Translations under genes and position numbers: made by a program
Part shown: positions 9,950-56,113 of the stretch, piece after piece
Position numbering within the stretch: the stretch's first letter is position 1
Layout: every line of letters starts with the position of its first letter
Notes under the pieces: model-generated
Told to the model about the DNA's origin: nothing
Seen by the model: the letters and a program-made list of their open reading frames with translations, nothing else
The model's database searches: none
Assembly (NCBI GenBank): GCA_900473915.1
Contig: UCNG01000003.1
Span: forward strand, 62,001-126,000
Length of the DNA: 64,000 nucleotides
Direction: 5' to 3'
Source: Hyphomicrobiales bacterium
Lineage (GTDB): Bacteria; Pseudomonadota; Alphaproteobacteria; Rhizobiales; Rhizobiaceae

Positions 9950-10000
9950 GGCACTTCCTTTCTTTTGTTACAAGAGGATCGAGCGCCGTTTATGGAGCGT

Positions 10001-10143
10001 CTAATCCCTCCGCCGGTGCAAACCGGATCAGGTTCAGCGGGTTGGCCGTTTATTCAGGCATTTCCGAACGCAAAACCGCTTTACACTTTTGCTGGAAATG
10101 CTTTGGGCCTCTCAGCCATCCGCGAAAGCAGACGGCACCCCGT
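10001..10143 (-). promoter_or_regulatory. TPP riboswitch (THI element) controlling thiBPQ
   Basis: Read on the minus strand the conserved blocks appear in order: ACGGGGTGCC, GGCTGAGAGG, AACCCGCTGAACCTGATCCG and GGCGGAGGGATTA. These are the core of the thiamine pyrophosphate aptamer. Placement directly before thiB confirms the target. The P3 arm between GAGAGGCC and GGCCAACCCG is long and holds a 44-base hairpin (10058-10101) that matches a dispersed repeat of this genome. High TPP should reduce expression, probably by hiding the thiB ribosome binding site; no clear terminator follows the aptamer. Confidence 0.95.
10058..10101. repeat. Dispersed hairpin repeat inside the TPP riboswitch P3 arm
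   Basis: GCATTTCC (10058-10065) pairs with GGAAATGC (10094-10101), and an inner stem GCAAAA/TTTTGC lies at 10070-10075/10087-10092. From 10069 to 10102 the sequence is nearly identical to 63928-63961 near the window end (two or three substitutions). This is therefore a copy of a genomic repeat used as, or inserted in, the riboswitch arm. Confidence 0.75.
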
Positions 10144-10247
10144 TAGAGCGGTTGCGACAATAATCTTTCGCAACGGGAAGGGCAAGAGATGGCAATGGCA
10201 GCGAATGCAGGCTTCCGGCGCGGATTTGCCCGTGTTATGAGCGGCTT

Positions 10248-38280: not shown

Positions 38281-38438
38281 TTGGCGAACTGCGCTTCCCG
38301 ACAGGTGTAACAGCATCCCCGGGGCCTTATTGATCTCTAAGGGAGCTGTCCCTGTGAAGGCTTGCGGGCTTTCGCATATGGCGCCCACCTACTTTGTAGG
38401 TTCCCGGGATCAATCACTACCATCGGTCGTCGTGGTCG
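38281..38438 (+). ncRNA. ssrS: 6S RNA
   Basis: The sequence between zapA and the folate cyclo-ligase locus shows the alphaproteobacterial 6S pattern: 5' GGCGAACTGCGCTTCCCGAC, a central CCCCGGGGCCTTATTGATCT that mimics an open promoter, CTAAGGGAGCTGTCCC, and a 3' part GGTTCCCGGGATCAATCAC to GGTCGCC that can close a stem with the 5' GGCGA. A -10-like CTATAT lies at 38269-38274, about ten bases before the 5' end. 6S RNA binds the housekeeping RNA polymerase holoenzyme. Ends are estimated to within roughly ten bases. Confidence 0.85.
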
Positions 38439-38538
38439 CCGCTTTCTTCTCTCGATTTGCCGCAGCTCCTCTATGAGCTTGATCTAACGGACAATTTGTT
38501 CGTAAACAGGCGCAAACTCCAACAATTTGCGCTTCCTG

Positions 38539-53889: not shown

Positions 53890-55113
53890 ATGAATATTGC
53901 GACCGCTGGAAAGGCGATGCCCGCACCGACCGTAAAAATGCGCGACACGCGCATTGACGTGTTTCGTGCGCTCGCGCTGCTGACGATCTTCATCAACCAT
54001 GTGCCCGGCACGATCTACGAGCATCTTACACACAAGAATCTCGGCTTTTCCGATTCGGCAGAAGCCTTCGTGCTGATTTCCGGCATGGCCGTGGCACTGG
54101 CCTATGGATCGAAGTTCGCTCCCGGCAGCCGCCTGCTTCTGTCGCTCAAGATGTGGCGCCGCGCCGGTGTGCTTTATACAACGCATATCATGACCACCAT
54201 GGCGACCATCGCCATTTTCGCCGCCGCCGCAATCTTCCTCAAGCGTTCGGAATTGCTCACGCAGATCAACATCGCTCCGCTGGTCAAGCACCCGGTCGAG
54301 GCGCTGTTCGGCATCGTCACCATGGGCCACCAGCTCGGCTATAACAACATTCTGTCCATGTATGCCGTCATGCTGGTTCTGACGCCGATCCTGCTTCTCC
54401 TGGCGCGCGTCAGCCTGCCGCTGATGCTTGGCGTTTCCGGCACCGTCTGGTTCCTTTCGGGCCTCTATCATGTGGCGCCCGTCAATTATCCGACAGAGGG
54501 CGTCTGGTTCCTCAATCCGCTGTCGTGGCAGTTCCTGTTCGCGATCGGTATCGCAGGCGTGATGCATGTGCGTCGCGGCGGCGAACTGCCGAAGCATCCG
54601 CTGCTCATCGGCCTCGCCGTCGGCTATCTGGTGCTGGCGCTGGCGTGGGTGCGCATCCCGCTGTGGGGCATCGATGCATCGATGGGAATGCCGATGGTCA
54701 TTACCGGCTTCGACAAGACCTTCCTGTCGGGCCCGCGCCTGCTGCACGTGCTGGCGATTGCCTATCTCATTGCCGTCGTTCCGACGCTGAACAACATCGC
54801 CCGCACTGCGCCAGATAATCCACTCGCCATTCTCGGCAAGCATTCGCTGCCGGTCTTCATTGCCGGTACGCTGCTGGCTATGGTTGCGCAGGTGATGAAG
54901 CTCGTGAATCCCGGCGGCCTGCCATATGACACGCTGCTGATTGCAACCGGCATCGTGATGCAGTTCGCGCTGGCCTATTATCTGGAATGGCTGCCGACCA
55001 TCGGCTGGAGCAAGAAGGGTGCGCGCGCTTCGGCAAAGCCCGTCGTGCCCGCTGCCGAACCGGTCAAGATGCAGCTTGCATCCGGCACCAAGCCTGCGAT
55101 GCAGCGTTATTGA
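53890..55113 (+). CDS. opgC: OpgC-family membrane protein, probable cyclic glucan succinyl modifier (Cgm-like)
   Basis: 407-aa integral membrane protein with about ten helices. OpgC pattern: RDTRIDVFRALALLTIFINH near the start, GFSDSAEAFVLISGMAVALA, LWGIDASMGMPMVITG and ILGKHSLPVFIAGTLLAMVA. OpgC adds succinyl groups to osmoregulated periplasmic glucans. In Brucella the gene cgm (which I recall as BAB1_1718, a few genes from the ruv/tol cluster) succinylates cyclic beta-1,2-glucan, and this gene fits that position. ATG 53890 is chosen because AGGTAGGCTGG precedes it. Confidence 0.85.
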   Translation: MNIATAGKAMPAPTVKMRDTRIDVFRALALLTIFINHVPGTIYEHLTHKNLGFSDSAEAFVLISGMAVALAYGSKFAPGSRLLLSLKMWRRAGVLYTTHIMTTMATIAIFAAAAIFLKRSELLTQINIAPLVKHPVEALFGIVTMGHQLGYNNILSMYAVMLVLTPILLLLARVSLPLMLGVSGTVWFLSGLYHVAPVNYPTEGVWFLNPLSWQFLFAIGIAGVMHVRRGGELPKHPLLIGLAVGYLVLALAWVRIPLWGIDASMGMPMVITGFDKTFLSGPRLLHVLAIAYLIAVVPTLNNIARTAPDNPLAILGKHSLPVFIAGTLLAMVAQVMKLVNPGGLPYDTLLIATGIVMQFALAYYLEWLPTIGWSKKGARASAKPVVPAAEPVKMQLASGTKPAMQRY

Positions 55114-55121
55114 GCAGTGAT

Positions 55122-55148
55122 AAGCCGCCCCGTTTCGGGCGGCTTTTC
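55122..55148 (+). terminator. Rho-independent terminator of opgC
   Basis: AAGCCGCCC-CGTTTC-GGGCGGCTTTT, nine bases after the opgC stop. Confidence 0.85.
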
Positions 55149-55200
55149 CTTGGGGGGAAGTGCGGTCCCGCGTGAGAATATCCACAGTGCGGAACCGAAA

Positions 55201-55215
55201 TTAACCATTCATTAA
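55201..55215. promoter_or_regulatory. CtrA-binding site, full consensus
   Basis: TTAACCATTCATTAA = TTAA-N7-TTAA, and it also contains the extended TTAACCAT half-site. It lies about 21-35 bases before the likely 5' end of the small RNA that follows, the -35 position typical of CtrA-activated promoters. Confidence 0.65.
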
Positions 55216-55235
55216 TCTTAACGGTGTTAAATGGT

Positions 55236-55334
55236 TTACATCCAGTTCGGCTGGATTCTTACCGAGTGGTTTAGCCACTCTGTTTGACGCCTCCCTGTTA
55301 AACTCCTGAGAGCCGCCCTTGCGGCTCTTTTTTT
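55236..55334 (+). ncRNA. Predicted trans-acting small RNA with three hairpins
   Basis: No ORF. Three stems in a row: ATCCAG-TTCGG-CTGGAT (55240-55256), GAGTGG-TTTAG-CCACTC (55264-55280), then after an unpaired stretch containing CCTCCC (55290-55295) and CTCCT (55303-55307) an 8-bp terminator AGAGCCGC-CCTT-GCGGCTCT followed by seven T. This layout is typical of alphaproteobacterial trans-acting sRNAs that pair with ribosome binding sites. I cannot assign it to a named family. The 5' end is estimated. Confidence 0.65.
55309..55334 (+). terminator. Rho-independent terminator of the predicted sRNA
   Basis: AGAGCCGC-CCTT-GCGGCTCT with a seven-T tail. No protein gene ends just before it (opgC already has its own terminator 160 bases earlier), which argues for a separate short transcript. 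Confidence 0.9.
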
Positions 55335-55376
55335 ATGCGCTTTTTGCCGCGTCTTCATAAAAACCCTTCGAAAATA

Positions 55377-55391
55377 TTAACCGAACGTTAA
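55377..55391. promoter_or_regulatory. CtrA-binding site upstream of rcdA
   Basis: TTAACCGAACGTTAA = TTAA-N7-TTAA, about 165 bases upstream of the rcdA frame and downstream of the sRNA terminator, so it belongs to the rcdA promoter. Confidence 0.65.
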
Positions 55392-55555
55392 ACATAAACT
55401 TGCGCGACCGTGCATGAAGGTGCAGTTTGTCGTGGACTTGTTTAGCGTAGCTGTTCCGTCTCAGCCTCCCCCATGGTCGAACAGCGGTTCAATGGTTTCA
55501 TTCGTATCCGCCTGGAAAATCCCACAGGCGTATACGGCAACGGAATGGGCCGCCG

Positions 55556-56113
55556 ATGCAGGCGGTCATGCAAGGTGGCAGAGCAGTGATTAGCGAACAG
55601 GGTCAGATGCCGAGCAATATGATCAGCCTCGCGGAGCGCATGGTCTTCTCGGATTCGTTCAAGCCGATCTATACGCAAGGCATGGATATGGTCGAGGAAG
55701 CGGCAAGCTATCTTGACGGCGAGGGCCGCGAGGATGCGCGCAACCTGTCGCGCGTCGCCGCGACGCTTTATGCCGCCGAATCGATGCGGCTGACCACGCG
55801 CCTCATGCAGATTGCCTCCTGGTTGCTGCTTCAGCGCGCGGCGCGCAGCGGAGAAATGTCCCGCCAGCAGGTTGCCGCCGAAAAGGCCAAGGTGCGCCTC
55901 GACACGCCGTCGGCGGGTGAGGCCGCGCAGGGCTGGTCCGAGCTGCCCGCCGCATTCGTGGAACTGGTTGAGCGGTCCATGCGCCTGCAGGCCCGCGTGC
56001 GCCGCATGGACCGTGAGGTCTATGGCGAGGTGGTTTCGTTGCAAGGCGTCCCGCGCGGCAACCCGGTTTCCGAGCAGATTGTGCTGTTAAAAACCGCTTT
56101 CGGCGCTTCATAA
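55556..56113 (+). CDS. rcdA: RcdA/DUF1465 regulator of CtrA proteolysis
   Basis: 185 aa from ATG 55556; GTG 55586 (with AAGGTGG upstream) and ATG 55607 are alternatives. The DUF1465 core is clear: MISLAERMVFSDSFKPIYTQ, MDMVEEAASYLDGEGREDAR, LYAAESMRLTTRLMQIASWL, then a helical end VERSMRLQARVRRMDREVYG. RcdA is an adaptor delivering CtrA to ClpXP in Caulobacter, together with CpdR and PopA. A CtrA site upstream suggests a feedback loop. Followed by ruvC. Confidence 0.87.
   Translation: MQAVMQGGRAVISEQGQMPSNMISLAERMVFSDSFKPIYTQGMDMVEEAASYLDGEGREDARNLSRVAATLYAAESMRLTTRLMQIASWLLLQRAARSGEMSRQQVAAEKAKVRLDTPSAGEAAQGWSELPAAFVELVERSMRLQARVRRMDREVYGEVVSLQGVPRGNPVSEQIVLLKTAFGAS

What the first reader, a model, noticed from the sequence alone, without database searches (positions are those of the whole stretch)
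55201..55391. Two full CtrA sites around a small RNA and rcdA suggest a feedback loop on CtrA
Seen directly: TTAACCATTCATTAA (55201-55215) and TTAACCGAACGTTAA (55377-55391), both exact TTAA-N7-TTAA. The first sits in the -35 region of a predicted sRNA, the second before rcdA. Known: RcdA helps deliver CtrA to ClpXP. Inference: CtrA drives its own turnover adaptor and also a regulatory RNA from adjacent promoters.
Basis: partly seen in the sequence, partly recalled or inferred. Interest (0 to 1): 0.7.

Follow-up and report, generated by a model that had tools for sequence, protein, structure and literature searches.

The report
Cell-cycle switch beside a small RNA

Summary
The RNA is Rfam RF02356, BjrC1505; the next gene is DUF1465, RcdA's family. 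The motif is not enriched genome-wide (35 sites against 42 for the reversed pattern), so conservation is the evidence. Box 1, before the sRNA, matches at least 7 of 8 positions in 181 of 186 loci, a control stretch in 3 of 186. Box 2 is exact in 50 of 62 Rhizobiaceae loci, 2 of 114 others. In three Rhizobiaceae genomes where sRNA and rcdA lie apart, each has its own exact box; six genomes without DUF1465 keep sRNA and box. So these look like two independent CtrA-type promoters, the older being the sRNA's. This may explain why S. meliloti CtrA binds at rcdA without changing its mRNA (PMC4433202, passages). Binding and transcription were not tested here. Suggestive extra: in the Rhizobium clade the sRNA seed is complementary to rcdA's ribosome-binding site, hinting at an incoherent feed-forward loop; this is weak in the window's genus.

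The parts
55201..55215 (+). Box 1: TTAACCATTCATTAA, CtrA-type site, probably over the -35 region of the sRNA promoter; conserved across the order
55227..55232 (+). Possible -10 element (TTAAAT) of the sRNA promoter, placed by comparison with other loci (inference)
55193..55334 (+). Span of the Rfam match RF02356 BjrC1505 (takes in box 1)
55240..55334 (+). Predicted sRNA transcript, about 95 nt: two hairpins, conserved core, terminator (start inferred)
55283..55299 (+). Core TTTGACGCCTCCCTGTT; in the predicted fold of the window's RNA CCUCCC is a hairpin loop
55308..55334 (+). Intrinsic terminator of the sRNA
55377..55391 (+). Box 2: TTAACCGAACGTTAA, CtrA-type site upstream of the likely rcdA promoter; conserved in Rhizobiaceae
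55399..55404 (+). CTTGCG, likely -35 element of the rcdA promoter, part of the conserved context of box 2
55596..55602 (+). AACAGGG, likely ribosome-binding site of rcdA, complementary over 7 nt to CCCUGUU of the sRNA core
55607..56113 (+). rcdA (PF07323, DUF1465); the listed ORF starts at 55556, ATG 55607 is the likeliest start (inference)

Best explanation
The stretch holds two independent, tandem CtrA-type promoters. The upstream one (box 1 over the -35) drives a short terminated sRNA, BjrC1505; it is old and kept across most of the order. The downstream one (box 2 ahead of a CTTGC -35) drives rcdA and is mostly a feature of Rhizobiaceae. Active CtrA would switch on the sRNA and, in this family, add control over the gene for its own proteolysis adaptor. 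Shown: the boxes, their positions and conservation, the RNA family and its fold, the synteny with rcdA, and separation of the two units in some genomes. Inferred: that CtrA is the protein that binds, that it activates, and the transcript ends. The sRNA probably acts by offering a C-rich anti-Shine-Dalgarno seed (CCUCCCUGUU) to mRNAs (inference).
For: Only two sites in 64 kb. Box 1 at least 7/8 in 181 of 186 loci and 8/8 in 100, against 3 and 0 of 186 in a stretch further upstream and 11% and 1% of shuffles; the best match starts 74-88 nt before the core in 178 of 186. Box 2 exact in 50 of 62 Rhizobiaceae loci and 2 of 114 others. Of 80 titled Rhizobium-type records 79 carry the sRNA-like seed and terminator; in these 79 box 2 is exact in 79 and box 1 at least 7/8 in 75. 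In G314, G214 and G227 the sRNA and rcdA are apart and all six units have an exact box. Six genomes with the sRNA and no DUF1465 match keep a box of 7/8 or 8/8. rcdA lies downstream on the same strand in 187 of 199 loci. The window RNA folds with z = -5.95; 11 of 26 consensus pairs have two-sided changes that keep the pair. Published: CtrA ChIP-seq peak at S. meliloti rcdA (PMC4433202, passages); multiple TSSs and possible CtrA sites before rcdA in agrobacteria (PMC10469942, passages).
Against: No CtrA binding or transcript data for this organism were seen. TTAA-N7-TTAA is not enriched over its reversed control in G001 (35 against 42), G262 (18, 27) or G036 (38, 37), only in G255 (36, 24) and G301 (22, 15). 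S. meliloti rcdA mRNA did not respond to CtrA depletion (PMC4433202), and in Hyphomonas neptunium CtrA does not regulate the proteolysis genes (PMC7200025; passages). A sigma-70 consensus scan finds no promoter in 55100-55650. In 12 of 62 Rhizobiaceae loci box 2 is not exact, in 10 of these 6/8 or less. The stem around the core has no two-sided changes.
Confidence: 0.75

Rival explanations
1. The 'sRNA' is only the terminated leader (attenuator) of the rcdA mRNA: one CtrA promoter at box 1 serves rcdA by read-through.
For: Order sRNA-rcdA on one strand in 187 of 199 loci; outside Rhizobiaceae no exact box lies between terminator and rcdA in 112 of 114 loci.
Against: The sRNA with its box is kept in six genomes without a DUF1465 match, lies apart from rcdA in three Rhizobiaceae genomes and on another contig in three more, some of them short contigs, and in three of six loci read outside the order has no rcdA within the locus. 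The core is identical in 140 of 199 loci.
Confidence: 0.1
2. CtrA binds the region but does not matter for rcdA; the functional target is the sRNA alone.
For: S. meliloti ChIP peak at rcdA without a change of rcdA mRNA on depletion (PMC4433202, passages); box 2 is rare outside Rhizobiaceae.
Against: Box 2 is exact in 79 of 79 scorable titled Rhizobium-type loci and stays with rcdA where the sRNA lies elsewhere (3 of 3 Rhizobiaceae genomes).
Confidence: 0.12
3. The boxes are AT-rich promoter elements or sites of another regulator, not CtrA sites.
For: The motif is not enriched over its reversed control in three of five genomes.
Against: Half-sites and spacing of 7 are held at one place over loci from 44 family labels while the stretch further upstream is not conserved; CtrA ChIP enrichment is published for this promoter region in S. 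meliloti.
Confidence: 0.05

Closest known systems
CtrA control of rcdA in Caulobacter crescentus
   Same: rcdA as a direct CtrA target; RcdA takes part in CtrA proteolysis (PMC4433202, passages)
   Different: Here an sRNA with its own CtrA-type site lies in front, and in Rhizobiaceae rcdA has a second site of its own
CcnA (CCNA_R0094), CtrA-linked ncRNA of Caulobacter (PMC8959179, passages)
   Same: Small RNA with a predicted CtrA site in its promoter and a C-rich loop
   Different: CcnA lies at the replication origin and pairs with ctrA and gcrA leaders; this RNA lies by rcdA and shows no conserved pairing of its core to ctrA leaders. The paper reports no clearly detected CcnA homologue in S. 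meliloti. Sequence kinship was not tested
BjrC1505 (RF02356) and, probably, SmelC671/Sm84/ReC71
   Same: RF02356 membership met. SmelC671 is a 100-nt single-copy sRNA 14.2 kb from 6S RNA on the other strand (PMC2873474, PMC7143759; table passages); in S. fredii USDA 205 and Ensifer BR816 this sRNA lies about 12 kb from 6S on the same contig, also on the other strand
   Different: No link to CtrA in the listings and passages seen. That SmelC671 is this sRNA is inferred from place, size and spread; in the window 6S and the sRNA are on the same strand, 17 kb apart
EcpR1 (SmelC291) and GspR (SmelC775), S. meliloti cell-cycle sRNAs
   Same: Rhizobial sRNAs acting on cell-cycle mRNAs (PMC4414408, PMC5928217; passages)
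   Different: Other loci (by pleD-divK; between SMc03844 and SMc03845); GspR was reported only from Sinorhizobium

Membership tests
RF02356 BjrC1505 sRNA | Covariance-model score above gathering | tested here: met
   78.2 bits against 50
RF02356 BjrC1505 sRNA | Hairpins and terminator supported by paired changes | tested here: met
   11 of 26 pairs with two-sided changes in 20 sequences, none of them in the stem around the core
RcdA (PF07323) | Profile match above cut-off | tested here: met
   190.3 bits against 25
RcdA (PF07323) | Promotes CtrA proteolysis | not testable with these tools
   Taken from S. meliloti and Caulobacter literature
Direct CtrA target promoter | TTAA-N7-TTAA at a conserved position | tested here: met
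Direct CtrA target promoter | CtrA occupancy and CtrA-dependent transcription | not testable with these tools
   Published for S. meliloti: occupancy at rcdA, rcdA mRNA unchanged; 'sRNA' and 'small RNA' do not occur in that main text
CcnA-like regulator of ctrA mRNA | Conserved base-pairing of the core to the ctrA leader | tested here: not met
   26 leaders read of 27 ctrA loci; longest exact match 7 nt (4 genomes), at unrelated places
GspR | Sinorhizobium-only locus between SMc03844 and SMc03845 | tested here: not met
   Order-wide, next to rcdA; sequences not compared
EcpR1 | Locus downstream of pleD-divK | tested here: not met
   opgC upstream, rcdA downstream; sequences not compared

The most novel reading that the evidence does not exclude
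CtrA, the sRNA and rcdA form an incoherent feed-forward loop: CtrA switches on rcdA and, from the neighbouring promoter, an sRNA whose CUCCCUGUU seed covers the rcdA ribosome-binding site, so that RcdA is made only once CtrA activity and the sRNA fall. For: in Rhizobium-type loci 69 of 87 rcdA start regions have at least 6 nt and 33 of 87 at least 8 nt of exact complement to the sRNA, against 10% and 2% of 330 background genes (many of the 87 are close kin); of 15, 26 and 23 genome-wide matches to AACAGGGA-N3-10-ATG in three genomes, rcdA is the only gene shared by all three. Against: in the window and in G001, 16 of 56 and 15 of 73 background genes pair as well or better than rcdA; a same-genus locus (L151) has lost the match; over all 274 loci the shift is modest (median percentile 0.197).
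Probability: 0.25. Interest if true: 0.8.

Novelty: new variant of a known kind. Interest (0 to 1): 0.55.

Why it matters
It gives an orphan sRNA family found in 166 of 199 sampled genomes of an order a likely master regulator and a cell-cycle role. It offers a testable explanation for the published S. meliloti puzzle of CtrA binding at rcdA with no effect on rcdA mRNA: the peak may be the sRNA promoter. It also suggests that CtrA sites predicted upstream of rcdA in this group (PMC2877005, passages) may outside Rhizobiaceae mostly belong to the sRNA.

Tried and rejected
Direct pairing of the sRNA core with ctrA: no conserved complement in 26 leaders; the ctrA start region ranks at a median percentile of 0.41, rcdA in the same genomes at 0.16. 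A first energy script timed out. A search for the complement of the 13-nt core with up to one mismatch in 8 genomes found the sRNA itself in all eight, two other exact hits (G035, G011) and one-mismatch hits; 30 places had loci, 28 of these were read at the match and no recurrent start region was seen. The leader/attenuator reading was set low because of separated and rcdA-less loci. Papers gave no flanking genes for SmelC671, so its identity is inferred from distance to 6S. EcpR1 and GspR were rejected by locus. As targets: rcdA pairs better than ruvC in 18 of 23 loci that hold both; 29 of 41 family groups have a median percentile below 0.5, 27 of 41 after adjusting for Shine-Dalgarno strength, three of these groups being parts of one family; outside the Rhizobium clade at least 6 nt are found in 22 of 67 and 37 of 115 loci against 13-15% of background. 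So rcdA as target stays a hypothesis. The five background genomes were chosen after I had seen rcdA start regions, which may bias (0 of 61, 0 of 69, 0 of 65, 5 of 62 and 15 of 73 genes as strong or stronger).

Full report
What is there. The two sites are as described and are the only TTAA-N7-TTAA matches in the window. A match alone is weak: in the nearest held genome there are 35 sites against 42 for the reversed pattern; over five genomes the motif exceeds its control clearly in two. Between the boxes lies an Rfam sRNA, RF02356 BjrC1505, matched at 55193-55334 with 78.2 bits. Upstream is opgC, downstream a DUF1465 gene, then ruvC. That DUF1465 is RcdA's family is recalled; Caulobacter vibrioides is the one of 14 control genomes that rings for it. 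The Rfam match takes in box 1; the transcript probably starts near 55240 (inference).

Structure. The predicted RNA folds at -39.3 kcal/mol, z = -5.95. Twenty members give four stems; 11 of 26 pairs are kept through two-sided changes, none of them in the stem around the core. The core TTTGACGCCTCCCTGTT is identical in 140 of 199 loci. A terminator follows, stem 55308-55329 and T-run to 55334.

Spread. RF02356 is found at E <= 0.001 in 166 of 199 genomes of the order, 96 of 121 of the family and 20 of 190 of the class, two of these within the order. I read 200 loci, 130 from the order search and 70 from the family search; the other matches, mostly weaker or second ones, were not fetched. Two loci were dropped as duplicates and the window added: 199. 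rcdA lies downstream on the same strand in 187 of 199; in four weak ones the script misplaced the core, though the unit can be seen upstream of rcdA in three of these that I printed.

Genomes that the Rfam model misses. PF07323 was sought in 30 genomes, most of them without a hit, and found in 24. Eight of these 24 rcdA loci (L258-L265) are of Rhizobium type, and all eight carry a shorter seed, CTCCCTGTTTTACC, with a terminator at the same place. Four others (L266, L269, L275, L276; L269 is from a genome with a hit) hold the CTCCCTG seed; twelve of 24 do not, three of them from genomes whose sRNA lies elsewhere. Of 80 titled records, the best 80 for a Rhizobium-type query, 79 have seed and terminator, among them S. 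fredii USDA 205 and Ensifer BR816; at least two of the 80 are genomes also in the 199.

The boxes. Twelve loci with a core below 13/17 and one with a short flank were left out. Box 1 is at least 7/8 in 181 of 186 and exact in 100; a control stretch at -300 to -235 gives 3 and 0 of 186, shuffles 11% and 1%. By family: Rhizobiaceae 65 of 65 at 7/8 or better, others 116 of 121. Box 2 is exact in 50 of 62 Rhizobiaceae loci and 2 of 114 others. In the 79 titled loci box 2 is exact in all, box 1 exact in 51, 7/8 in 24 and 6/8 in 4. Box 2 has the context gTTAACCnTttgTTAAacATgngCTTGC, that is, a -35 of its own; box 1 seems to cover the -35 of the sRNA (inference).

Natural separations. In G314, G214 and G227, all f1, the sRNA (L155, L179, L139) and rcdA (L267, L268, L274) lie apart, in G214 by under 5 kb; all six units have an exact box. 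In G008, G010 and G017, of other families, the two lie on different contigs, some of them short; the sRNA boxes are 8/8, 7/8 and 7/8, while rcdA has no exact box (best 7/8, 6/8, 6/8), as expected if box 2 is a family trait. G122, G199, G151, G121, G018 and G132 have the sRNA but no DUF1465 match; their boxes are 7/8 (four) or 8/8 (two). Of six loci read outside the order three boxes are exact and three 7/8; three of the six loci have no rcdA match. So box 1 goes with the sRNA and box 2 with rcdA.

Literature. In S. meliloti CtrA binds at the rcdA and cpdR1 promoters by ChIP-seq, yet neither mRNA changes on CtrA depletion; rcdA is essential there, and CtrA rises on RcdA depletion and falls on its overexpression (PMC4433202, passages). 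CtrA control of rcdA was predicted as conserved in this group (PMC2877005, passages). Agrobacteria show several TSSs and possible CtrA sites before rcdA (PMC10469942, passages); the far TSS may be the sRNA's (inference). In Hyphomonas neptunium CtrA does not regulate the proteolysis genes (PMC7200025, passages). BjrC1505 occurs in one held paper, in a list (PMC6337395, one passage). SmelC671, the likely S. meliloti counterpart, is given no function in the passages seen, and no predicted promoter motif in one review's table (PMC3927594, PMC2873474, PMC7143759). No listing or passage that I saw links this sRNA to CtrA (searches; most listed papers were not opened). Subscription papers, such as any Brucella CtrA ChIP study, are not held.

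What the sRNA may do. It shows no conserved complement to ctrA leaders. Its C-rich seed can pair with ribosome-binding sites in general. rcdA is above average as a partner, clearly so in the Rhizobium clade (69 of 87 with at least 6 nt, 33 of 87 with at least 8; background 10% and 2% of 330 genes), and it is the one gene shared by three genome-wide lists; two of these genomes share three further genes. In the window's genus the match is 7 nt (window, L078, L158) or lost (L151). I hold this as a one-in-four hypothesis.

Organism. The window's own genome is not held; G001 is nearest.

Noticed in passing
38283-38441 (+): 6S RNA (RF00013), 17 kb before the sRNA on the same strand; in S. fredii USDA 205, Ensifer BR816 and G269 it lies about 12-15 kb away on the other strand.
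   Followed up: partly
9988-10152 (-): TPP riboswitch (RF00059, 57.3 bits).
   Followed up: no
55254-55258: A GANTC site (CcrM type, recalled) lies inside the sRNA gene; such a site is present in 48 of 65 Rhizobiaceae sRNA genes against 18 of 122 others.
   Followed up: partly
L258-L265, L282-L361: A divergent Rhizobium-type form of the sRNA that the Rfam model misses or scores low; the family could be widened.
   Followed up: partly
L110, L113, L120, L105, L118, L122: Six genomes keep the sRNA and its box but have no DUF1465 match.
   Followed up: partly
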